A stretch of DNA of 64,000 bases, taken from positions 1-64,000 of the forward strand of contig LJSY01000016.1 of assembly GCA_001314805.1 (NCBI GenBank), in the 5' to 3' direction. The notes under the pieces are model-generated. The model searched no databases, was not told where the DNA came from, and was given only the letters and a program-made list of their open reading frames with translations. Every line of letters starts with the position of its first letter. Within the stretch, counting starts at the first letter, position 1. Of the stretch, positions 53,804-64,000 are shown in pieces. The position numbers and the translations under genes are program-made. This DNA comes from Rhodobacteraceae bacterium HLUCCO18. Its GTDB lineage: Bacteria; Pseudomonadota; Alphaproteobacteria; Rhodobacterales; Rhodobacteraceae.

Positions 53804-54129
53804 GGACTTCGGTTCTTGCAGCCTTTGGCTACATTCACGAACCGGACCCATCGTAGGCCGGGCACCGCTGCATCAAGCGCCAAGGCCTCTCCCGTCTTAC
53901 CCTTCGCAAGTTCACAAGAAGGCAGCATTTCCTACAACTGAGCTTAGCCCCGGCAACTGCGCGAGATGAAAGCTTCGTGCGTCGGGCGACTGCTCAATCT
54001 GCGCCAACCCGCGCAAACACCAATCGGGCTCCGATCGCCTATGGCTATGAGATTAGCGGCAGATCCAGAAAGCAATGTCAGGTTATGCGCAATAATGTCG
54101 CCAAGTATCAAGGTGCGTTTTCCAAACAG
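53804..54129. other. AT-richer intergenic stretch, no gene recognised
   Basis: Between the CoA-transferase and the aldo/keto reductase stops. The base composition is clearly lower in GC than the flanking operons. Short open frames on both strands show no family match. No terminal inverted repeats or terminator hairpin were seen. Confidence 0.55.
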
Positions 54130-55065
54130 TTAAGACTCCTCCGAGCGATCTGTCGCTGGTGGCGGAGTTGGAGACAGTGCCGTGAGGCGCGCATAAGTCT
54201 CGTCATCCAGTTCGAAACTAATGGCATCAAGCGATGGCCTCATCTGATCAGATCTGCTGGCGCTAAGGATTGGTGCTGTTATCGTGGGGTTATGAGCAAC
54301 CCAGGCGATGGCGAGCGTGATGGCAGAAACACCGAGTTCGGCTGCAAGCTCCTGCAATGAGTTCGCAGCCTTGTGCATCCAGTCTTGACCGTAGCGCGAC
54401 TTGTACATCGGATCATCCGTAAGGCGGCCATCTTTCCCAAGATTGTACTTGCCTGTCAGAAGACCACCCCCAAGCGGCGAGTATGGAACAACGGCGATGT
54501 TCTCTGATGTACACATCGGCAAGATCTCTACTTCGGCCTGACGTTTGACCAGGTTGTACATCGGCTGCATCATTTCGATTTTGAGATCGAAGGACGACGC
54601 GACACCAGCGGCCTTCATCACCTGCCAGGCGGCATAGTTCGACACGCCGATATGTCGTACGCGACCGGCGTCGACCATTTTTGCAAGCGCCTCGTAGGTC
54701 GCTTCGAGCGGCACTTCGTCGGACCAACGATGCATGTAAAGCATGTCAACGAAGTCGAGCTTGAGACGCTTCAGGCTATCTTCAAGGTCATTTGTGATTG
54801 CTGCCGGAGCGCAATTCCCGGTCGAGGCGCACTTGGTGGCGATGAAGAGATCGTCCCGCTCAGGGGCCACAAATTGGCCCAGCAAAGTCTCTGATGCCCC
54901 TCCGGTGTAGCCGTGAGCCGTGTCGAAGAAGCTTATTCCCGCGTCGCGGGCTCTGTCATACATGGCGCGACTATCAGTCGGATCCGCCCTGCCACCCCAT
55001 TGCATGGTGCCAAAGCAATACGAGGAAATCGGGTGGCCGGCGGGTGTGCGAAGATCTGGTTTCAT
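54130..55065 (-). CDS. Aldo/keto reductase
   Basis: A 311-residue NADPH-dependent oxidoreductase of the AKR family. The catalytic set is Asp and Tyr in FFDTAHGYTGGASE, with Lys in ATKCAST and His in LYMHRWSD. VRHIGVSNYAAWQV is the family signature, and PILSASRSDQM lies near the cofactor phosphate site. The ATG at 55065 lacks a good ribosome site. Its codon use is less GC-rich than that of the neighbours, which suggests horizontal gain. Confidence 0.92.
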   Translation of the reverse strand: MKPDLRTPAGHPISSYCFGTMQWGGRADPTDSRAMYDRARDAGISFFDTAHGYTGGASETLLGQFVAPERDDLFIATKCASTGNCAPAAITNDLEDSLKRLKLDFVDMLYMHRWSDEVPLEATYEALAKMVDAGRVRHIGVSNYAAWQVMKAAGVASSFDLKIEMMQPMYNLVKRQAEVEILPMCTSENIAVVPYSPLGGGLLTGKYNLGKDGRLTDDPMYKSRYGQDWMHKAANSLQELAAELGVSAITLAIAWVAHNPTITAPILSASRSDQMRPSLDAISFELDDETYARLTALSPTPPPATDRSEES

Positions 55066-55296
55066 CAATGAACCATCACATTTCTTCAGCGCGACGAACA
55101 AGTGCCTCCGGGGGGTGATGCTAGCTCTGGAGATCGTCCGCTCTGGGCTCCAAGCGGCCTTTCGCTGCAGTGGACTCGAACGGCCCCCCAAGGGCAGGAC
55201 GCCGTCTCGCCACGGATCTCGACGATGTTGCGCAGATCCGGAACGCTGGCTGCGCGCCCGGATCGCCGTGTGTGATGCATGCTGACTTGCGGGTGG

Positions 55297-55806
55297 CTAG
55301 TCGAAGCCGCCCTCGCGGTCGGCGAGCATCACGTTCAGAAGCTCTACCACCGCCTTTCCCTCCGCCCGGGAGGTCACGCCGCCGATGGCCACCCTGCGGC
55401 CCGCGCGCCACCAAAGCCCCGGAGCGTAGACACGGCTCATCGGCGTCTTCAGGTGAACAAGGAAGCCCGCGGCGGGCTTGAAGGCGAAGGCGCTGGAGTC
55501 CACCCGGTCCACGTCCTCGACGCGGAACAGCAGCCGCCCACCGTCCTCGCGCATCTCGGTCCGGGTCAGTTCCAGCACCACCGCGCTTGCCTGCCAGAGC
55601 CGCCACGCCCAGAAGAGGCTGAGCCCGCCGAGTGCGATCAGGAAGGCCAGCCAGACAAGGTCCGCGGGCGGAAAGGTCGCCGCGATGTAAATGAGGATCA
55701 GGCCCAGCATCCCCGTCACGCCGGTCGCGAAAATGCGCCGGGCCGGCTTGGGGGTGATCCGGACCAGCACCTCGTTCGGATCGGGTCTGCGGTTGCGCTT
55801 TGCCAT
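55297..55806 (-). CDS. Conserved hypothetical membrane protein
   Basis: A 169-residue protein with two adjacent hydrophobic helices (about 28-46, FATGVTGMLGLILIYIAATF, and 52-72, WLAFLIALGGLSLFWAWRL). A cytosolic beta-rich tail of about 90 residues follows, containing RLLFRVEDVDRVDSSAFAF. The layout resembles small membrane proteins with a PH-like domain, but no family is recognised with confidence. It is divergent from the pirin gene. Confidence 0.7.
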   Translation of the reverse strand: MAKRNRRPDPNEVLVRITPKPARRIFATGVTGMLGLILIYIAATFPPADLVWLAFLIALGGLSLFWAWRLWQASAVVLELTRTEMREDGGRLLFRVEDVDRVDSSAFAFKPAAGFLVHLKTPMSRVYAPGLWWRAGRRVAIGGVTSRAEGKAVVELLNVMLADREGGFD

Positions 55807-55952
55807 GCGGGCCCCTTAGCCGGTAAGTGCGAGGATGGCGAGAGGGCAGGCGCGATCCCTTCGCATGCGCACAGCGACCGTGTGCCCGTGCCGGATTGCC
55901 GACCGCCGCCGGATGGCTATCTACCGCTCCACACGCACCGGAGGTCTGCCCC

Positions 55953-56864
55953 ATGTCGATCCGTCCCATCCTCGAGACCCGCGCCGCACAGCCGACGATG
56001 GAAGGGGCTGGCGTTCATTTGCACCGCGCCTTCGGGTTTCAGGATCCCACGGAGCTCGACCCGTTCCTGCTTTTCGACGATTTCCGCAACGACGACCCTG
56101 CGCACTACCGGCAGGGTTTTCCATGGCACCCGCATCGGGGGATCGAGACCATCACCTATGTGCTGGAGGGCACGGTCGAGCATGCCGACAGCCTCGGCAA
56201 CACGGGGCGCCTCGGCGCGGGCTCGGTCCAGTGGATGACGGCAGGCTCCGGCATCCTGCATCAGGAAATGCCGCTGGGCAACGCGCGCGGCCAGATGCAC
56301 GGCTTCCAGCTCTGGGGGAACCTGCCGGGGTCGATGAAGATGACCGCGCCGCGGTATCAGGACATTCAGGGGGCTGAAATCCCCGAAGTGACCGATGACG
56401 ACGGCACCCACGTGCGGGTCATCACGGGAGCATTCTGGGGCAAGCGCGGGCCCGTGGACGGGATCGCGGCGGACCCGCAATATCTAGATGTGACGGTGCC
56501 TGCCGGTCTGAAGAAAACCTTCAGGATCGACACCTACCGCCGCGCCTTTGCCTATGTGTTTCAGGGGGCGGGGGCGTTCTCGGACGCTTCGGCGCCCACC
56601 GGCGTGCTGCTGGAAAAGGAGGTCATGGGACAGGAGGTCAATATCCGCGACATGTCGGGGGACCGCACGCTGATCCGCTTCGGCACCGGAGACGAGGTGA
56701 CGGTGCAGGCCGGGCCTGAAGGCGTGCGATTCCTCCTGATCTCGGGCGCGCCGATCGAAGAGCCCGTGGCATGGCACGGTCCAATCGTGATGAACACGCA
56801 AGCCGAACTGCGGCAAGCGATGGCGGACCTGAGAAATGGCACCTTCATCAAACCCGCGCATTGA
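55953..56864 (+). CDS. Pirin family protein
   Basis: A 303-residue bicupin. FPWHPHRGIETITYVLEG carries two of the metal-binding His, and GSGILHQEMP carries a third His plus Glu. Some pirins act as quercetin dioxygenases and others as redox-linked cofactors. The ATG at 55953 follows GGAGGT. The hydrolase gene starts 32 bases downstream, so the two are probably cotranscribed. Confidence 0.92.
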   Translation: MSIRPILETRAAQPTMEGAGVHLHRAFGFQDPTELDPFLLFDDFRNDDPAHYRQGFPWHPHRGIETITYVLEGTVEHADSLGNTGRLGAGSVQWMTAGSGILHQEMPLGNARGQMHGFQLWGNLPGSMKMTAPRYQDIQGAEIPEVTDDDGTHVRVITGAFWGKRGPVDGIAADPQYLDVTVPAGLKKTFRIDTYRRAFAYVFQGAGAFSDASAPTGVLLEKEVMGQEVNIRDMSGDRTLIRFGTGDEVTVQAGPEGVRFLLISGAPIEEPVAWHGPIVMNTQAELRQAMADLRNGTFIKPAH

Positions 56865-56896
56865 GGCCGGCGTCCGCGCCCGGTAGAAGACCCGCC

Positions 56897-57670
56897 ATGC
56901 TCCACACGGTGATCCATGGCAACGACAACGCCCAGCCGCCCCTCCTGATCGCGCATGGCCTCTTCGGGTCGGCGCGGAACTGGGGTGTTGTGGCCAAGCG
57001 GTTGTCCGACACGCGCCGCGTGCTGACCGTCGACATGCGCAATCACGGCGACAGTTTCCGGGACGACAGCCACGGCTATCCCGACCTCGCCGCGGACCTC
57101 GCCGAGGTGATCGCCGCCCATGGCGGTGTCGCTGATGTCGTCGGCCATTCCATGGGGGGAAAGGCGGCGATGGCGCTGGCGCTGGACCATCCTGAAACGG
57201 TCCGCAGGCTCGTGGTGGCCGATATCGCGCCCGTGGCCTATGGCCATACGCAGCAGCCACTGATCGACGCGATGCGCGCGGTGGACCTGTCCCTGGTGGA
57301 GCGGCGCGGGGACGCCGATGCGCAGCTGGCGCCGCGGGTGTCGGAGGCGGGCGTGCGGGCGTTTCTTCTGCAGTCGCTGGATGTGGGCGCGCGGCGCTGG
57401 CGCCTCAACCTCGACGCGCTGTCCGCGAACATGGCCGCGATCCTGGGCTGGCCCGATCTGGACGGGCGGTACGACGGGCCTGCGCTGTTTCTGTCGGGGG
57501 CCGCGTCGGATTATGTCCTGCCCGAGCATCGGCCCGCGATCAAGGCGCTGTTCCCGAACGCGAAATTCGCCAAGATCCCCGGCGCGGGCCATTGGCTCCA
57601 CGCCGAGAAGCCCAAGGAATTCGAGGCCGCCCTGCGCGCTTTTCTCAGCCCGGCCGCATCATCCGCGTGA
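56897..57670 (+). CDS. Alpha/beta hydrolase (YbfF-like esterase)
   Basis: A 257-residue hydrolase. LIAHGLFGSARNW forms the oxyanion hole, VVGHSMGGKAAMALAL holds the nucleophile Ser, and the His near the end is in GAGHWLHAEKP. The profile fits YbfF-type short-chain acyl esterases. The substrate is unknown. Its stop overlaps by 26 bases the end of the convergent cytochrome b561 gene. Confidence 0.88.
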   Translation: MLHTVIHGNDNAQPPLLIAHGLFGSARNWGVVAKRLSDTRRVLTVDMRNHGDSFRDDSHGYPDLAADLAEVIAAHGGVADVVGHSMGGKAAMALALDHPETVRRLVVADIAPVAYGHTQQPLIDAMRAVDLSLVERRGDADAQLAPRVSEAGVRAFLLQSLDVGARRWRLNLDALSANMAAILGWPDLDGRYDGPALFLSGAASDYVLPEHRPAIKALFPNAKFAKIPGAGHWLHAEKPKEFEAALRAFLSPAASSA

Positions 57671-58133
57671 TGAGACCCGTCTTCCAGACGAGCTGATGCA
57701 CGGCGACCGCGCCGACATGGGCGATGATCAGCAAGAGCAGAACAGCGCGTAACACTTCATGCGCGTCGCCCGCCGCCTCGAGCCGCCCGCCCCAGGCCAT
57801 CACGCCGCTGACCGGCAAAAGGACGAGCAGCGCGTAGAACCCAAGATGCGCCCAGTGCGACAGGGTCCGGAAGATCGCCGGTTCGCCCTCGGGCGGCGGC
57901 GGTACACCATGTTCGCGCCGCAGCATCAGCCGCCAGATCACGAGGCCGAGAATGATCAGACCGCCCGCCGCATGGCCGATCACCGGCGCCGATACTGCGT
58001 AGGTCCCCGTCTCGAGCGCCTGGTCATAGGCCGAGGCGATGCCGTCATGCAGCAGGTATTGCAGCGCCACCAGAAACACGGTGATCCAGTGCAGGCGTAT
58101 CTGCAGCCTGCTGTAACCGCTGGGCTGGCTCAT
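57645..58133 (-). CDS. Cytochrome b561 family protein
   Basis: A 162-residue inner-membrane protein with four helices. Haem-ligand His are likely in RLQIRLHWITVFLV, VIGHAAGGLIIL, LSHWAHLGFYALL and LLIIAHVGAVAVHQLVW. Such proteins pass electrons between quinones and periplasmic acceptors. The ATG at 58133 follows AAGGGA. It lies 56 bases downstream of a small membrane protein that has an Fnr-like site, so the two may be co-regulated. Confidence 0.9.
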   Translation of the reverse strand: MSQPSGYSRLQIRLHWITVFLVALQYLLHDGIASAYDQALETGTYAVSAPVIGHAAGGLIILGLVIWRLMLRREHGVPPPPEGEPAIFRTLSHWAHLGFYALLVLLPVSGVMAWGGRLEAAGDAHEVLRAVLLLLIIAHVGAVAVHQLVWKTGLITRMMRPG

Positions 58134-58189
58134 GGCGGTGTTCCCTTGCTGATGCTGTCGGAGCGGAGGCTACGAGGTGAGGGCGCGCG

Positions 58190-58369
58190 TCACAGCGCCG
58201 AAATCTTGCGGGCCGCGAACCAGGTCACCGCGACCGCCGTCACCGCGCCGAGCGCCGCGGCCCAGACGATGGGCTGCCAACCGGGCAGGCCCGCGGCCAG
58301 AACGACGACGATGGCTGTGCCGGACAGGGCCGTCGCGACGATGGAATAAAGCAGGAAGAACAGGCGCAT
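58190..58369 (-). CDS. Small two-helix membrane protein, paralogue of the gene at 60.0 kb
   Basis: A 59-residue protein beginning MRLFFLLYSIVATALSGTAI and ending in a short basic tail. It has two hydrophobic helices joined by AAGLPGWQPIV. The block G-x-x-IV-x-VLAAGL-x3-QPIV-x-AAA is shared with the protein encoded at 59998-60237, so the two are paralogues. GGGAG lies eight bases before the ATG. No function is known. An Fnr-like site upstream suggests oxygen control. Confidence 0.65.
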   Translation of the reverse strand: MRLFFLLYSIVATALSGTAIVVVLAAGLPGWQPIVWAAALGAVTAVAVTWFAARKISAL

Positions 58370-58434
58370 GGGGGTGGCTCCCGGTGGTTTCGTTTGTCGA
58401 TTGCACGGATAGACCCGCCCCGTCCGCTACGGCA

Positions 58435-58448
58435 ATGATCTGGGTCAA
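58435..58448 (-). promoter_or_regulatory. Fnr-type site upstream of the small membrane protein gene
   Basis: The minus strand reads TTGACCCAGATCAT, two mismatches from the Fnr consensus TTGAT-N4-ATCAA and with both TTGA and ATCA cores. A weak -10 (TCTATC, 58408-58413) is centred about 31 bases away, the spacing of class II Fnr activation. Confidence 0.4.
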
Positions 58449-58600
58449 ATGGCAGGTCTTGGCCGGTACCGGGCTGTGGCGGATTTGCCAAAGGCCTAGC
58501 GGTTTGTGTGGCATTCTATGCAATATCTGGTTGCCAGACCGATATCCGGCGCGGTATCCGGCACACGGTGCTAGGACGCGGATGCATCGCCTGATACGTT

Positions 58601-58635
58601 AAACGGGGCTCTGGCGCACACTAGGCCCCGTTTTT
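58601..58635 (+). terminator. Rho-independent terminator (plus strand)
   Basis: AAACGGGGC (58601-58609) pairs with GCCCCGTTT (58625-58633) around a 15-base loop and runs into five T. No plus-strand protein gene lies upstream as far as 58371, so it may end a small RNA. Confidence 0.7.
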
Positions 58636-58657
58636 CGTCTGGCTCTCCTCCAAACGG

Positions 58658-58706
58658 AAAAAGGCGCCAGGTGCTTGGACGCGGTCCGCACATCGCCTGA
58701 CGCCTT
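58658..58706 (-). terminator. Rho-independent terminator (minus strand)
   Basis: On the minus strand AAGGCGTCAGG (from 58706) pairs with CCTGGCGCC (to 58663) with one mismatch, encloses a small GGAC/GTCC hairpin, and is followed by five T. It ends a minus-strand transcript of unknown nature that starts somewhere between 58707 and 59340. Confidence 0.7.
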
Positions 58707-58897
58707 CCCGGTACCGGACAATTCGGATCGCTCCGCACTCTCCGGCCCGATGAGATCGCATCCTTGCGGAAACGACCCCTGATCCATCTGCTGTCGCCAG
58801 CTTCGGGATCGTCCGATCCGCCCGTTTTCGCCTGCGTTCGCCGCGCAGACCCGAAGGCCCCGCCTGCGTTCGCAACCGATCCTGTGGCCCGTTCGGT

Positions 58898-59038
58898 TCA
58901 GTCCGGGTACAGGTCCCGTTCCGTCCCGCCGATCGCCTCAGGAAGGCGTCTCGAACACCGCCGCTGCCTTTCGACCGCTGCGGTAGTGATACGTTCCCCG
59001 CAACCCCCGGTTCCGGCAAGGGCGAAGCAGTGCAGCAT
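58898..59038 (-). CDS. Possible 46-residue protein (doubtful)
   Basis: A short frame beginning MLHCFALAGTGGCGERI and ending DLYPD, with AGGAAATT just upstream of the ATG. There are three Cys in the first 31 residues and a basic middle. It has no family match and may be chance within a non-coding transcript. Confidence 0.2.
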   Translation of the reverse strand: MLHCFALAGTGGCGERITTAAVERQRRCSRRLPEAIGGTERDLYPD

Positions 59039-59283
59039 GGAAATTTCCTGTTGAGCGAACTGTGGGCAAGCCTGTGCGCGCAGGGGTGACGTGACGCTTT
59101 TATGACGTTTTTGCAAAGCCTTGGTTGTCATGTGGAAAACAGCCCCCGAAAAGGCGCGATTTCTGCAGTTGCAAAGGTGTTTTTCGACGGAATCGCGCCG
59201 TCGGTGGCGCGACTCACCCCTCGGACCCGAGTCGCTCCGGGCCTCGGCGCTTGACCTGCGACAACGCCGGCGGGCGGGCCGGG

Positions 59284-59292
59284 TGCTATGAT
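59284..59292 (+). promoter_or_regulatory. Extended -10 promoter candidate
   Basis: TGC precedes TATGAT (59287-59292), matching the extended -10 form also seen before the DUF1992 gene. No -35 is evident. Transcription would begin near 59299, about 48 bases ahead of the ATG at 59347. Confidence 0.35.
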
Positions 59293-59346
59293 GCCGCGGT
59301 TCAAGCAGCCGAAACCGATGGGGCCCGGTGCGGGCCGGGAGGGGAC

Positions 59347-59622
59347 ATGATCACACTCGACGATATGGAAGACATGTGCAGCCTGACGCGGGAAGAGATC
59401 GCGCAATTGGCCGACCACGAACACATCACGCTCGAGGCCGCCGTGGCGGAGGCCGAGGCGTTGATGCACGCCCATGGCGGGCCGCAACACGTTCACGCGA
59501 TGCTGTGCGAGGATATCCGCTCGGCGCTCCATGCCGATGACACTGCGGGGGCCAAACGCCTCTTCGCGATCCTTCGCGGCTTCGTCACGGCCCATCCGGA
59601 GGCCGTGCGCGGGTCGGAGTGA
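59347..59622 (+). CDS. Hypothetical protein
   Basis: A 91-residue acidic, mostly helical protein starting MITLDDMEDMCSLTREEIAQ with several His in the middle (HEHITLE, HAHGGPQHVHAM). There is no membrane segment or known motif. GGGAGGGGAC precedes the ATG. Four bases separate its stop from the convergent membrane protein gene. The His cluster could bind metal, which is speculation. Confidence 0.7.
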   Translation: MITLDDMEDMCSLTREEIAQLADHEHITLEAAVAEAEALMHAHGGPQHVHAMLCEDIRSALHADDTAGAKRLFAILRGFVTAHPEAVRGSE

Positions 59623-59626
59623 CGGC

Positions 59627-59953
59627 TCAGCCCCGGCGCAGCGACCGCAGCAGCGCCGAGGCGATCCAGACCACGCCGATCCAGCCCAGCCACAGCACCG
59701 CCATGAGCGTCACGGTCAGCGGCCAGAGGTTCGCCGCCGTGGGGTCCGCAGCCATGAGCGCAATGAGCCACAGGCACATCCCGCCCCAGGCCAGCGTCGG
59801 CAGCGCCACGGGAACAAGAAGCACGACCGGCGGCGGCCAGCGGTCGAGCGGCAGCCGCACGGCGCAGGCGTTCAGCCATGCAAGGCCAAACCCGATCCCG
59901 CCGAGGATCGTGGCGATCACCGACAGCGCTGCGATATGAACGGCCGCTTCCAT
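59627..59953 (-). CDS. Hypothetical membrane protein
   Basis: A 108-residue protein with three hydrophobic segments (VIATILGGIGFGLAWL, VVLLVPVALPTLAWGGMCLW and LTVTLMAVLWLGWIGVVWIA) and a short Arg-rich C-terminus. No family is recognised. It follows the small membrane protein gene at 59998 by 44 bases on the same strand and may be cotranscribed with it. Confidence 0.65.
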   Translation of the reverse strand: MEAAVHIAALSVIATILGGIGFGLAWLNACAVRLPLDRWPPPVVLLVPVALPTLAWGGMCLWLIALMAADPTAANLWPLTVTLMAVLWLGWIGVVWIASALLRSLRRG

Positions 59954-59997
59954 GGGTGGCAGGATGCACCCCGATCCGGGCGGGATTGCGGCGGCGC

Positions 59998-60237
59998 TCA
60001 GCCCTTGATCTGTCGGCTGGTCACGATTGTCACGGGGATGGCGATGGCGGTCGCGACGGCGGCGGCGATCACGATGGGCTGCCGGTCGCTCAGACCGGCT
60101 GCGAGAACGGAGACGATGCCCGAGCCCGCAAAGGCGCTGGCGGCCATGATGAAGATGAGAAGCGGAAGGCCAAGACGCAGGGGTAAGACTGCCCCTCGGT
60201 TACGATCGGGCGGTAGGGTAGACCGGGTGCTGCGCAT
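59998..60237 (-). CDS. Small two-helix membrane protein, paralogue of the gene at 58.2 kb
   Basis: The C-terminal 50-60 residues, from GLPLLIFIMAASAFAG to SRQIKG, form two hydrophobic helices. They share VLAAGLSDRQPIVIAAA with the 59-residue protein at 58190-58369. The start is uncertain: ATG 60237 adds a basic 20-residue lead, a CTG at 60180 would match the paralogue's length, and ATG 60147 cuts into the first helix. No function is known. Confidence 0.55.
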   Translation of the reverse strand: MRSTRSTLPPDRNRGAVLPLRLGLPLLIFIMAASAFAGSGIVSVLAAGLSDRQPIVIAAAVATAIAIPVTIVTSRQIKG

Positions 60238-60589
60238 GCGGCTGTCGCCGTCTGTGCACGGCAGTGGCCAGAGGAAGTGGAAAATCCCGTGGCGAGAAAG
60301 ACTCAGGCAGGCCGACAGTTTCATGAGCCGTGTGCGCCACTTCGTGTCGCATATGGCTGCCTGTCGGCCAAGGCGTTGATTTGGAATGATATGGAGGCGA
60401 GTACCTCTAATTCGGCTCCACCGCATATCGTCGCAATCCGTTTCATAATCAGGCGCTTGCGGGAAATCTCTTGTCTCGCCCCGTTCCATGAAATAGCAAT
60501 CAGTCGCACCCGTTTGGGCGGGTTGTATGCCGGTAGGCGAGTTGGATTCCCAGTTTGAACAGAATCCGGCCATTTCGGGGGTGTCGACC
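60238..60589. other. Junction region before the integrase, with inverted repeats
   Basis: An AT-richer stretch with no gene. Overlapping inverted repeats are present: CAGGCAG (60304-60310) with CTGCCTG (60357-60363), and GGCCGACAG (60310-60318) with CTGTCGGCC (60361-60369). A third pair, GATATG (60388-60393) with CATATC (60424-60429), encloses a GAGG/CCTC hairpin. These may be integrase arm sites, control elements or part of the left attachment site. No tRNA gene is visible. Confidence 0.5.
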
Positions 60590-61870
60590 ATGCCGAAACG
60601 CGCGCGAGAGCTCGGGCCGCTCGAGGTCAAGCGCCTGAAAGGGCCGGGCGTTTTCGCCGTTGGGGGGGTGGCGGGCCTCTCCATGCAGATCACCGAGTCC
60701 GATTCCCGATCATGGCTTTTCCGCTACCGGATCAACGGTCGGAGGCGAGAGGCAGGGCTGGGACCCTACCCGGACGTGACCCTTGCCCGCGCGCGGGACT
60801 ACGCCCGCGAGGCGCGCGACATGATCCGGTCGGGAATCGACCCGATCGAGCACCGGCGGGCCGCGCAGCGACGCCTCCTGACCTTCGCGCAGGCCGTCGA
60901 CCGCTACGCGGCCGAGAAGACGGTCGAGTTCCGCAGCGAGGTGCACCGGGTCCAGTGGCGGCGCTCGCTCGAGAAGCACGCGCTCCCGATCCTCGGCGAC
61001 ATGGCGGTGCAGGACGTGACCTTGCAGGACGTGCTGCAGGTCCTGCGCCCGCTCTGGACCGAGAAGACCGAGACCGGGTCGAAGGTGCGCCAGCGCCTCG
61101 AGCGCGTCCTCGACTTCGCGACCGTCTCCGGGCACCGGACGGGCGAGAACCCGGCCCGATGGCGCGGCAACCTCGACATGGTGCTCGCGGCGCCCACGCG
61201 GCTCACCGGCGGGCGCAACTTCCCGGCCTTGCAGATCGACGACGCGCCGCGCTGGTACGCGGCGTTGCGGGCGCGGCGGGGCATGAGCGCGCGGGCCCTC
61301 GAGTTCCAGGCGCTGACCGCGTCGCGCTCCGGCGCCGTCCGTTTCGCGACGTGGGACGAGATCGACCTCGGGGCCGGGCTCTGGACGATCCAGCCCGGCC
61401 GGAAGCAGTCGAAGATCCCGCCCTCCGGGCGCCCGCACCGCGTGCCGCTCACGGACAAGATGCGCGCGCTGCTCGAGGCGCTCCCGCGCGCGCAGGACAA
61501 CCCGCTCGTGTTCTGGGCGCCGCGGGGCGGCACCCTCTCCGACGCGACGCTGGGCGCCGTGATGAAGAAGATCGACGCGGCGGACGAACGCGCGGGCGGC
61601 GCCGGGTTCAGGGACGCGCGGACGGGCGCCCCGGCCGTTCCGCACGGGGTCCGGTCAACGTTCCGCTCCTGGGTGGCGGAGCGCACCGGCTTCGACGGCG
61701 ACATGGCCGAGATCGCGCTCGCCCACAAGGTCGGGACCAAGGTGCAGCAGGCGTATGACCGCTCCGACCAGGTCGAGAAGCGGCGGGCGATGATGGCGGC
61801 ATGGGGGCGATTCCTCGCGGGCGAGGCGCTCGGCGACGTGGTGCCGATCGGGGCCCGGGCGCATGGCTGA
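60590..61870 (+). CDS. Tyrosine recombinase (P4-type integrase)
   Basis: A 426-residue site-specific recombinase. The N-terminal arm-binding domain (about 1-95) includes WLFRYRINGRRREAGLGPY. The core-binding domain follows, then the catalytic domain with Arg246 (TASRSGAVRF), Lys275 or nearby, His352 and Arg355 (PHGVRSTF), His379 (ALAHKVG) and Tyr389 (QQAYDRSD). All key residues are present, so it should be active. The ATG at 60590 is chosen over an upstream frame at 60527. Its stop overlaps the next gene. Confidence 0.94.
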   Translation: MPKRARELGPLEVKRLKGPGVFAVGGVAGLSMQITESDSRSWLFRYRINGRRREAGLGPYPDVTLARARDYAREARDMIRSGIDPIEHRRAAQRRLLTFAQAVDRYAAEKTVEFRSEVHRVQWRRSLEKHALPILGDMAVQDVTLQDVLQVLRPLWTEKTETGSKVRQRLERVLDFATVSGHRTGENPARWRGNLDMVLAAPTRLTGGRNFPALQIDDAPRWYAALRARRGMSARALEFQALTASRSGAVRFATWDEIDLGAGLWTIQPGRKQSKIPPSGRPHRVPLTDKMRALLEALPRAQDNPLVFWAPRGGTLSDATLGAVMKKIDAADERAGGAGFRDARTGAPAVPHGVRSTFRSWVAERTGFDGDMAEIALAHKVGTKVQQAYDRSDQVEKRRAMMAAWGRFLAGEALGDVVPIGARAHG

Positions 61871-62480
61871 TCTGCGATGGAACGAAGCCTTGGCGTTGTG
61901 GGAGTACTACGTCGCCACCCGCGACGAGGTTGACCTCGAGGAGGAGCTGATCGAGCTCGGCGAGAGCATCGAATATGCGGGGGTGCGTCGAGCTCTTCGG
62001 ACGGCGCTCCTCGAGATAGATCGCCTCGCCGCCGCGGGAAAGCTTGAGCGCGAGCGCGAACGGCTGCGCCCTTTGGTCGGGGGCGTGGTGGCGGATCCGC
62101 GGCCGGCCCTCGCGTTCGACGCGAGTCCGGTCGGTGTGGGGATGAAGAACCTTCGGGACGGGCTGGAGAGCCCAGACCCGGAGGAGCGGCTTCGGTTCCA
62201 GAGGGTCGCCGCGCGGTGGCGCGCGCGCGATCTCGGCGAGGTGCAGGACGAGCTGAGCCTGTTGAAGGCACCGAAACGCACGGGCGGCCGTCCCGGCGTG
62301 TCGCCGCCGTGGCGCAAGGTTCACGACCAGATGTGCAGGATGCGGGCCCGCGTCGCGACCGGCGTTCCCGTGATCGAAGCGGCGCGCGCCGTCGCGCGAG
62401 AGGAGGGCGCGCCGGGGCTTGCCGAGCGTGCCCGCTATCTTGCCCGCCTCTTCGAGGAGAAGCGGGCGCTGCGGGAATAA
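61863..62480 (+). CDS. Hypothetical protein of the integrated element
   Basis: A 205-residue, charged, mostly helical protein. The first 80 residues are acidic with a repeated LEEELIELGESIEYAG-like helix, and the last 60 are basic (PKRTGGRPGVSPPWRKVHDQ), perhaps DNA-binding. No family is recognised. The ATG lies inside the integrase 3' end (eight-base overlap), so expression is coupled to the integrase. Confidence 0.7.
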   Translation: MADLRWNEALALWEYYVATRDEVDLEEELIELGESIEYAGVRRALRTALLEIDRLAAAGKLERERERLRPLVGGVVADPRPALAFDASPVGVGMKNLRDGLESPDPEERLRFQRVAARWRARDLGEVQDELSLLKAPKRTGGRPGVSPPWRKVHDQMCRMRARVATGVPVIEAARAVAREEGAPGLAERARYLARLFEEKRALRE

Positions 62481-62559
62481 ACCCGGCCGGGGTTTATTCC
62501 CTTCGCAATCCGCGCGGATATGCTCTCTTTGGGTGGCATCCATTGAAAAGGGATGCGCC

Positions 62560-62739
62560 ATGTTTCTTTCTGACCGACAGGTGGCCGAACGCTACAGCGT
62601 CCATAGGGGGACCCCGTGGCGCTGGATGAAGTCGGACCCGAGCTTCCCGAAACCGATCGAACTATCGCCGGGTTGCACCCGCTGGCGTCTCTCTGACCTC
62701 GAGGCCTGGGAGCAAGCCAAAGGCGGGGCGGCAGCCTGA
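62560..62739 (+). CDS. AlpA-like helix-turn-helix regulator
   Basis: A 59-residue protein. FLSDRQVAERYSVHRGTPWR forms the winged helix-turn-helix, and the DPSFPKPIEL and WRLSDLEAW segments are the family hallmark of AlpA/excisionase-type regulators. In P4-like elements such proteins control the integrase or excision. AAAAGGGA lies upstream of the ATG. The stop shares one base with the start of the primase gene (TGATG). Confidence 0.88.
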   Translation: MFLSDRQVAERYSVHRGTPWRWMKSDPSFPKPIELSPGCTRWRLSDLEAWEQAKGGAAA

Positions 62740-64000
62740 TGACGACCGTGGGGGAAAGCGACCGCTTCGACCCGGTGGAGCAGGATGCATTCGACGCTGC
62801 GGCGGCGGTGTTCGCCGTGGCCGCCGCCGAGGCCCGTGGCGAGGCGGCGACGGCATACCTCGAGCTCACCGAACACGGCATCGCGCAGGCGTTCGCGGAT
62901 CGCTACTCGGGCCGCTTCCTGTACGATTGCTCTCGCGGCCGGTGGTACGTCTGGGATGGCTCCCGCTGGGCGGAGGACGCCACCGGGCGGCACTTCGAGC
63001 TCCTGCGCCAACTCGCGCGGGAGGCGTCCGAAGCGGTCCCGGCTGGGCAGCGTCGAACGGCGCGGAAGGCTGCGACCGTCGCAGGCGCGGAGCGGTTCGC
63101 GCGCACCGATCCCGTATTCTCCCGGTCCGGGGAAGGGTGGGACAAGGACACGCTTCTCCTCGCGTGTCCTGGCGCGACGGTCGATCTTCGGGCCGGGCGG
63201 GCCACGGCGCCGGACCCTGCGCACGAGATCACAAAGCTCGCCGCCGTGGCGCCGCGCGAGGGCGCCTGCCCGCGCTGGCACAGATTCCTACTGCAGGTGA
63301 CAGGCGGCGACGAGGAGCTCGTGCGCTTCCTTCAGGTCTGGGTGGGCTACCTCCTGACGGGCGAGACGCGCGAGCACAAATTGGTATTCATCTACGGCCC
63401 CGGCGGAAACGGGAAGAGTGTCTTCGCGAATGTCGTCTCGCGCCTCCTCGGCGACTACGCCGTGAGCGCGGCGATGGATACCTTCGTGGCCGCGCGGGGC
63501 GAGCGTCACCCGACCGACCTCGCCATGCTCCGTGGCGCCCGGCTTGTCGTCGCGTCGGAGACCGAGGAGGGGCGGGCGTGGGCTGAGTCCCGCATCAAGG
63601 CCATCACCGGCGGCGACCCGATCACGGCGCGGTTCATGCGCGGGGACTTCTTCACTTTCCAGCCAGCCTTCAAGCTCATGCTGATAGGCAACCATCAGCC
63701 GGTGCTGCGGAACGTCGACGCGGCCGTGCGCCGCCGCTTCCTCATTCTGCCGATGACGAGGACACCCGAGCGCCCAGACCCCGACCTCGAGGCGAAGCTC
63801 TGGGAGGAGGCGCCCGAGATCTTCGCTTGGGCGATCCGCGGCGCGCAAGAGTGGCTCGAGGAGGGTCTGCCGCTACCCGACGCCATCGCGGCCGCGACGA
63901 CCGAGTACTTCGACGAGCAGGACCTCTTCGGCGCGTGGTTCGACCAGTGCTGTGCAGTCGGGCGAGCGGCCGACTTCGAGACCGCGTCCGCCCTCTTCGC
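62739..64000 (+). CDS. P4-family primase/helicase (D5-type), 3' end beyond window
   Basis: An open frame of at least 420 codons runs off the right edge. An N-terminal region of about 170 residues (RFLYDCSRGRWYVWDGSRW) matches the D5_N domain that precedes the superfamily 3 helicase. The Walker A motif is GPGGNGKS at about 220-227. A Walker B-like LVVASETEEGRAW and the sensor LMLIGNHQPVL follow. The archaeo-eukaryotic primase domain is not seen here. The protein would drive replication of the element. Confidence 0.9.
   Translation, partial: MTTVGESDRFDPVEQDAFDAAAAVFAVAAAEARGEAATAYLELTEHGIAQAFADRYSGRFLYDCSRGRWYVWDGSRWAEDATGRHFELLRQLAREASEAVPAGQRRTARKAATVAGAERFARTDPVFSRSGEGWDKDTLLLACPGATVDLRAGRATAPDPAHEITKLAAVAPREGACPRWHRFLLQVTGGDEELVRFLQVWVGYLLTGETREHKLVFIYGPGGNGKSVFANVVSRLLGDYAVSAAMDTFVAARGERHPTDLAMLRGARLVVASETEEGRAWAESRIKAITGGDPITARFMRGDFFTFQPAFKLMLIGNHQPVLRNVDAAVRRRFLILPMTRTPERPDPDLEAKLWEEAPEIFAWAIRGAQEWLEEGLPLPDAIAAATTEYFDEQDLFGAWFDQCCAVGRAADFETASALF

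What the first reader, a model, noticed from the sequence alone, without database searches (positions are those of the whole stretch)
60590..64000. P4-like integrated element entering the right edge
Integrase, an unknown protein, an AlpA-like regulator and a D5-type helicase are packed head to tail with overlaps of 1-8 bases across three of the junctions. All integrase catalytic residues are intact, so the element may still move. Such satellites commonly carry anti-phage or capsid-redirecting cargo beyond the replication gene, which here lies outside the window. The compact int-unknown-alpA-primase operon is worth following.
Basis: partly seen in the sequence, partly recalled or inferred. Interest (0 to 1): 0.7.

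Follow-up and report, generated by a model that had tools for sequence, protein, structure and literature searches.

The report
Phage satellite with borrowed tail ruler
At the window's right edge begins a complete 9.8-kb parasite of phages, sitting at a transfer-RNA gene, that carries its own virus-shell protein and its own tail-length protein but no other recognisable virion part, so it probably builds its particle partly from its own and partly from a helper phage's proteins.

Summary
The contig runs 7.4 kb past the window, so the element could be read to its end: about 9.75 kb between a 14-bp repeat (60392-60405) and the 3' end of tRNA-Cys (contig 70146). Its cargo is an HK97 major capsid protein (MCP) and, 0.4 kb downstream, a tail tape measure protein (TMP); no portal, large terminase or other tail gene was detected. 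It fits a PICI-like satellite better than P4. Related satellites, many at tRNA ends, occur in Rhodobacteraceae and beyond; their MCPs form satellite-only clades (two clades and three single rows in a 197-row tree; one clean split in a 53-row subset). Six other loci also have a TMP within 0.7 kb of the MCP. TMP types differ between sister satellites. Most likely mechanism: a virion chimeric in head and tail. Precedents: SaPIbov5 Ccm (MCP homologue), Vibrio PLE (TMP). The pairing in a portal-less element is a new variant. Helper, induction and particles are unshown.

The parts
60392..60405 (+). left attachment repeat TGGAGGCGAGTACC, identical to the 14 bp at the 3' end of tRNA-Cys (contig 70146-70159, outside the window)
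   Evidence: exact match at these two places in L009; longest shared word 14, against mean 8.5 and maximum 11 in 100 shuffles; only match with up to 2 mismatches in the window, 0.36 expected by chance at that looseness
60590..61870 (+). tyrosine integrase, 426 aa (in-frame upstream ATG at 60527)
61863..62480 (+). unknown 205-aa protein; 8 bp overlap with int. Several related satellites have an ORF of unknown function at this place, but no similar sequence was found in the annotated loci
62473..62501 (.). perfect 12-bp inverted repeat GGGAATAAACCC / GGGTTTATTCCC over the stop codon of the unknown gene; possible operator or transcript end
   Evidence: not in the terminator-like list
62560..62739 (+). 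AlpA-type regulator, 59 aa
   Evidence: PF05930 25.2 bits; similar alpA genes in related satellites
62739..64000 (+). D5_N/DUF5906 helicase, 474 aa, no primase half; runs past the window end to contig 64163. The rest of the element (contig 64164-70159: HTH protein, MCP, 96-aa protein, TMP, repressor, tRNA-Cys end) lies outside the window and is listed with contig coordinates in the full report

Best explanation
A complete PICI-like phage satellite of about 9.75 kb, integrated at the 3' end of tRNA-Cys. Shown by sequence: two attachment repeats, integrase, AlpA, helicase, a small TerS-like HTH protein, a free-standing protease C-terminal domain, an HK97 MCP, a TMP and a divergent repressor; no portal, large terminase or other tail gene detected. 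Inferred life cycle: a helper phage relieves repression; int excises and the helicase replicates the element; the satellite MCP forms or joins a small shell that uses the helper's portal, protease and large terminase; the HTH protein steers packaging; the satellite TMP replaces the helper's in otherwise helper-made tails. The particle is therefore chimeric in head and tail. Sister satellites share an MCP clade but carry TMPs of different types, which suggests that the TMP is exchanged to match the current helper.
For: Boundaries: 14-bp repeat at the tRNA 3' end and 198 bp before int; seven related satellites show the same geometry (tRNA end opposite int) with repeats of 15-60 bp. Genes. MCP clades: two satellite-only clades, support 100 and 99, in the 197-row tree; one branch between 18 satellites and 35 chosen phages, 100/98, in all of 200 bootstrap trees. 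MCP-to-TMP gap: 8-679 bp in seven loci (L009 included) against 974-6674 bp, median 2929, in 71 phage rows. TMPs of the six other loci confirmed by PHROGs. TMP types within one MCP clade: phrog_10574 (L009), 2854 (L195), 8462 (L156). Small flanking proteins match others at syntenic places. A relative, L157, has a 141-bp terminal repeat, read as a circular 8767-bp genome. Precedents: SaPIbov5 Ccm (PMC8569155, abstract), PLE TMP (PMC12987554, passages).
Against: No helper is known: the only other PF05065 MCP and the only PF04860 portal in the genome belong to a GTA-like cluster, and the TMP has no match in 50,697 phage records. No circle or particle is shown for this element. Five loci (L156, L173, L178, L195, L203) were labelled satellites because of the short MCP-TMP gap itself. 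Only 3 of the 14 satellites labelled by an integrase carry a TMP (L009, L089, L091). In the 197-row tree satellites do not form one lineage (7 changes of label, at least 6 forced by starred branches). In four congeners the window's left flank is not beside tRNA-Cys, so the flank is rearranged and no clean empty site was seen. The 80-aa HTH protein itself did not match phrog_12540 and may be an ordinary regulator. The 78-aa protein's best match is in L292, a phage-type locus. The TMP could be neutral or an interference factor. Absence of portal and terminase rests on profile searches.
Confidence: 0.6

Rival explanations
1. Decayed prophage: deletions removed most head and tail genes and left intact MCP and TMP by chance.
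For: The protease is reduced to a C-terminal piece and the TerS-like protein looks like an N-terminal piece; helper and circle unknown; TMP presence is patchy (3 of 14).
Against: The MCP falls in a satellite-only clade; MCP and TMP stand equally close in six other loci; frames are open and overlap by 4 bp at both small-gene junctions; attachment sites and integrase are intact. The half-length HTH protein is also found in L091, and in L195 the match covers only the same half.
Confidence: 0.12
2. Satellite in which the MCP works Ccm-like (mixed into a helper shell to change its size) and the TMP is an interference factor that spoils helper or rival tails, not a part of the satellite's virion.
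For: SaPIbov5 Ccm occupies pentamers only (PMC8569155, abstract); tail assembly is a known target of satellite defences (PMC11364771, PMC12987554, passages).
Against: The TMP is as long as its nearest prophage relative (647 against 651 aa); in PLE the satellite TMP is in the virion and needed for transfer (PMC12987554, passages).
Confidence: 0.18
3. Classical P4-like satellite.
For: int, AlpA, P4-family helicase C-terminal domain.
Against: No Psu, Sid or Delta family hit, no primase half, own MCP and TMP.
Confidence: 0.03
4. The resident gene transfer agent, not a phage, is the helper.
For: The GTA-like cluster is the only source of a PF04860 portal found in the genome, and the nearest solved MCP is Rcc01687 (that this is a GTA capsid is recalled).
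Against: The window MCP does not group with the GTA-like MCPs L083 and L084, nor its TMP with theirs; the satellite clades also include Pseudomarimonas of the Lysobacteraceae; GTA heads are too small for 9.8 kb (recalled).
Confidence: 0.03

Closest known systems
Gram-negative PICI with capsid homologue (PmCI172 of Pasteurella multocida) and SaPIbov5 with Ccm
   Same: integrase, regulator and replication gene in PICI order; a satellite-encoded MCP homologue; SaPIbov5 shows that such a homologue can reshape the shell
   Different: here a TMP follows the MCP; the MCP lies in clades found mainly in alphaproteobacteria; helper unknown
cf-PICI (capsid-forming PICI)
   Same: own capsid gene; a figure legend in PMC12987554 reports putative tmp genes in a sampling of cf-PICIs
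   Different: no portal, large terminase, protease domain or connectors detected
Vibrio cholerae PLE (PLE1, PLE4, PLE11)
   Same: satellite-encoded TMP; model for chimeric tails
   Different: PLE remodels the phage's coat proteins and carries a tail assembly chaperone; here an own MCP, and the 96-aa gene before the TMP has no known function
P4-like satellites
   Same: integrase, AlpA, P4-family helicase domain
   Different: no psu, sid or delta seen; has MCP and TMP

Membership tests
P4-like satellite | alpha protein with primase and helicase parts (recalled) | tested here: not met
   helicase part only; best PHROG match begins at 329 of 772
P4-like satellite | psu / sid / delta genes (psu and sid also named in PMC11389934; list otherwise recalled) | tested here: not met
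   no such family among 10 element proteins in Pfam and PHROGs; the repressor and four further small ORFs were scanned in PHROGs only
Gram-negative PICI | integrase, alpA, replication gene in this order | tested here: met
Gram-negative PICI | specific attachment site | tested here: met
   14-bp repeat at tRNA-Cys; whether prophages never use it was not tested
[quoted passage not shown]
   MCP and TMP present; PmCI172, called a PICI there, also has an MCP homologue
Gram-negative PICI | phage-dependent induction and packaging | not testable with these tools
   needs a helper phage
cf-PICI | own MCP | tested here: met
cf-PICI | own portal, head maturation protease, connectors and large terminase | tested here: not met
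   none among the scanned proteins nor with local profiles of portal, large terminase and protease except the protease C-terminal piece
PLE | satellite TMP | tested here: met
PLE | sequence relationship to PLE genes | not tested
   no PLE sequence was compared
Prophage remnant | MCP nested among phage MCPs | tested here: not met
   the window MCP's clade holds no phage row (5 rows; 18 rows), though that clade neighbours phage clades

The most novel reading that the evidence does not exclude
Satellites, distinct from cf-PICIs, PLEs and P4, that make doubly chimeric virions: an inherited satellite shell protein plus an exchangeable tape measure taken from the current helper's kind of phage, with portal, terminase motor, tail tube and baseplate all stolen. 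In three of them (L009, L091, L195) a half-length TerS-like DNA-binding protein may plug the satellite genome into the helper's motor.
Probability: 0.4. Interest if true: 0.78.

Novelty: new variant of a known kind. Interest (0 to 1): 0.6.

Why it matters
Well-characterised satellites were held to hijack helper tails until PLE tape measures were reported in 2026 (PMC12987554). Separate satellites that bring their own shell protein and carry tape measures of several types make testable why a satellite needs its own ruler: to dodge tail-blocking defences, to fit a small head, or to match the helper. They also give a search signature (MCP and TMP adjacent, no portal) and, from the TMP type, a guess at the helper.

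Tried and rejected
P4-like assignment: rejected on gene content. Anti-phage cargo: PADLOC gave only HTH-type matches for the 103-aa repressor among 10 proteins. Empty site in four congeners: tRNA-Cys found in all four, but the window's left flank lies elsewhere; G396 has the homologue of window 53.7 kb beside the tRNA instead, so no clean empty site. Helper in the same genome: PF05065 and PF04860 give only the GTA-like cluster besides the element; other portal families were not searched. Isolated relatives: TMP no match; MCP under 60% identity in all 309 phage and 159 plasmid records that matched. First viral scan with the window MCP alone found nothing. Class-level search of 385 genomes: 20 of its listed places fetched; one satellite (L290), the rest phage- or GTA-type or undecided. 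L203 was first counted as a TMP satellite; its TMP was not confirmed by PHROGs or NCBIfam, so it is left out of the seven. L071 was set aside as GTA-like. Pairwise alignment of the 80-aa HTH protein with the L072, L073 and L195 proteins did not exceed shuffles; only L091 did. Repeat at tRNA for L070: 9 bp, chance level. L066 has no tRNA in its 20 kb, and L068 was not tested for a repeat. Structure of the L195 96-aa homologue: two helices; no fold search made, as long helices say little.
Full report
The window is bases 1-64000 of a 71,371-bp contig (C11) of an 87-contig, 3.68-Mb genome. Window coordinates therefore continue as contig coordinates beyond 64000; locus L009 is contig 58000-71371.

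Observation. The four genes exist at the stated places. int/unknown overlap by 8 bp and alpA/helicase by 1 bp; between unknown and alpA lie 79 bp, and a perfect 12-bp inverted repeat covers the unknown gene's stop codon. Integrase: three Pfam domains above cut-off, catalytic residues readable. AlpA: 25.2 bits against a cut-off of 21. Helicase: D5_N and DUF5906; its best match is to the C-terminal half of a phage primase family.

Completion. Beyond the window (contig coordinates) come a 142-aa unknown (64303-64731), an 80-aa HTH protein (65038-65280), an 82-aa unknown (65258-65506), an 80-aa protein (65652-65894) overlapping the MCP by 4 bp, an HK97 MCP of 416 aa (65891-67141; PF05065, E 2.5e-63), a 96-aa protein (67290-67580) overlapping the next gene by 4 bp, a 647-aa tape measure protein (67577-69520; best PHROG E 4.1e-19), a divergent HTH repressor of 103 aa (69510-69821, minus) and a 78-aa protein (69821-70057), then tRNA-Cys (70146-70219, minus). 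No portal, large terminase, protease, other tail or lysis family appeared among the scanned proteins. A 14-bp repeat, TGGAGGCGAGTACC, starts exactly at the tRNA 3' end and recurs 198 bp before int; shuffled sequence reached 11 at most in 100 trials. The element is thus about 9.75 kb.

Relatives. The MCP was sought in 394 genomes of the family, 385 of the class, a named genome collection (70 loci) and viral contigs (none with the MCP alone; 28, 80 and 5 loci; one search was capped, 554 relatives among the first 600 stretches). From the genome searches I fetched 20 stretches of my choice (places, among them the own GTA-like locus) and 20. Loci were annotated with local profiles for large terminase, portal, protease, TerS, MCP, TMP, integrase, AlpA and helicase. 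After dropping five duplicate loci (L090, L092, L096, L101, L204), 197 MCP rows remained, some near-copies among them: 150 phage, 19 satellite, 2 with portal but no large terminase, 26 undecided. Of the 19, 14 have an integrase near the MCP and no portal or terminase; five (L156, L173, L178, L195, L203) were so labelled because a TMP follows the MCP closely, which is circular for that trait. Named hosts include Roseovarius amoyensis, R. salinarum, Thermohalobaculum xanthum, Marimonas lutisalis, Defluviimonas, Aestuariivirga and Pseudomarimonas arenosa (Lysobacteraceae).

Integration geometry. Eleven satellites were examined for a repeat between the tRNA and the other end. Matches were 14 bp (L009), 44 (L089), 18 (L091), 49 (L086), 15 (L087), 60 (L095), 29 (L104), 9 (L070, chance level), 57 (L067), 53 (L069) and 18 (L088). 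In eight, L009 included, the tRNA end lies opposite int and the repeat just before int; in L091 and L088 int is beside the tRNA. L066 has no tRNA in its 20 kb.

MCP clades. In the 197-row FastTree satellites fall in two pure clades (5 rows, support 100, with L009; 13 rows, support 99) plus three lone long branches (L173, L178, L290); each clade holds one undecided contig (L157, L100) and no phage. The two clades do not join: the label needs 7 changes, at least 6 by starred branches, against a shuffled mean of 18.4. In a careful tree of 53 rows (18 satellites including L157, L100 and three gap-labelled rows; 35 phage rows that I chose, two of them undecided, L206 and L273; the three long branches and the portal-bearing pair left out) one branch parts satellites from phages, 100/98, in all of 200 bootstrap trees. 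So satellite-only clades are firm; one single origin is not.

Tape measure. In 71 phage rows with a TMP the distance from MCP to TMP was 974-6674 bp (median 2929, second smallest 1950). It is 205 bp here and 679, 154, 8, 332, 145 and 600 bp in L089, L091, L156, L173, L178 and L195 (distances between stop-to-stop frames). PHROGs confirm all six of those TMPs; that of L203 (1416 bp, TerS and HNH between) is not confirmed. Of the 14 integrase-labelled satellites 3 carry a TMP (L009, L089, L091). TMP types differ within one MCP clade (phrog_10574 here, 2854 in L195, 8462 in L156), while phrog_10574 recurs in L173 and L178. Within my loci, five of the seven TMPs are nearest to a phage-labelled TMP (L009, L089, L156, L178, L195; here L073, a prophage with a 651-aa TMP), L091's to an undecided locus, L173's to satellite L178. 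This suggests repeated replacement; TMPs evolve fast, so it is inferred, not shown.

Other shared parts. The 96-aa protein has a homologue at the same place in L195 (score 72, maximum of 1000 shuffles 57). The 80-aa protein before the MCP matches the C-terminal domain of prohead proteases: 11 hits (9 distinct loci), of which only the weakest, L205, is a phage. The HTH protein matches an 86-aa protein of L091 at the same place (z 10); that protein, and a 142-aa one in L195, match only the N-terminal half of phrog_12540, whose full-length members stand directly before the large terminase gene in prophages L072 and L073. The window element's protein itself matched phrog_664 (1.1e-5) and terminase small subunit phrog_309 (0.0022) but not phrog_12540, so the reading as a half TerS is inference. 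Weak best matches of the 82-aa and 142-aa proteins also fall in satellites (L089, L095), that of the 78-aa protein does not (L292). The repressor has homologues near the far end of L089 and L066. L157, with MCP 52% identical, has a 141-bp terminal repeat, read as a circular 8767-bp genome without a TMP.

Helper. The genome holds one other PF05065 capsid and one PF04860 portal, together in a GTA-like cluster on C9. The TMP has no match among 50,697 phage records; MCP matches there are all under 60% identity, at most 37.3% in the 20 listed.

Literature. PMC12987554 (abstract, passages and legends seen): PLEs encode alternative TMPs built into chimeric tails and needed for transfer; [quoted passage not shown] PMC8569155 (abstract): SaPIbov5 Ccm, an MCP homologue, occupies pentamers. 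PMC6092414 (passages): PICI features; PmCI172 encodes an MCP homologue and makes small heads. PMC10690885 (passages): cf-PICI gene list. PMC11364771 (passages): tail assembly inhibition. PMC11389934 and PMC10187409 (passages): satellite families. PMC8224337 (passages): Rhodobacteraceae prophages; the word satellite does not occur in its main text. Searches for satellites with tape measures or in Rhodobacteraceae (listings capped) showed no description of these elements; the cf-PICI, VEIME, tycheposon and satellite survey papers were not held under the identifiers tried, so an earlier description there cannot be excluded.

Judgement. That this is a complete satellite is well supported. That its virion is chimeric in head and tail is the most likely reading, by precedent and anatomy, but no step of the life cycle has been shown.

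Noticed in passing
contig 70421-71332 (L009:12422-13333, minus): A second integrase (303 aa) stands on the other side of tRNA-Cys; an 808-bp stretch is 83% identical at the same place in congener G396, so it is probably an older resident, not part of this element.
   Followed up: partly
L312:9022-14302 (G235): Another congener carries a different insertion of about 5.3 kb at the same tRNA-Cys, with a 44-bp repeat; by eye it holds a nuclease-like ORF and an integrase resembling that of satellite L070.
   Followed up: partly
window 53804-60391: About 6.6 kb of chromosomal-type genes lies between a CaiB-like gene and the element; in four congeners homologues of the 58-60 kb part are not beside tRNA-Cys, which points to a rearrangement here.
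   Followed up: partly
L105, L107, L133: Loci with the unusual order MCP, protease, portal and no large terminase detected within reach (Rhodobacter sp. YIM 73028, Sulfitobacter dubius, Phaeovulum vinaykumarii).
   Followed up: no
G000:C9:33000-52999 (L083): GTA-like cluster: large terminase, portal, protease, MCP and short tape measure in order.
   Followed up: partly
L157:1-8908: Viral contig with a 141-bp terminal repeat, read as a circular 8767-bp MCP satellite without a TMP.
   Followed up: partly
whole genome G000: Ten integrase-family matches in 3.7 Mb; the other mobile elements were not examined.
   Followed up: no
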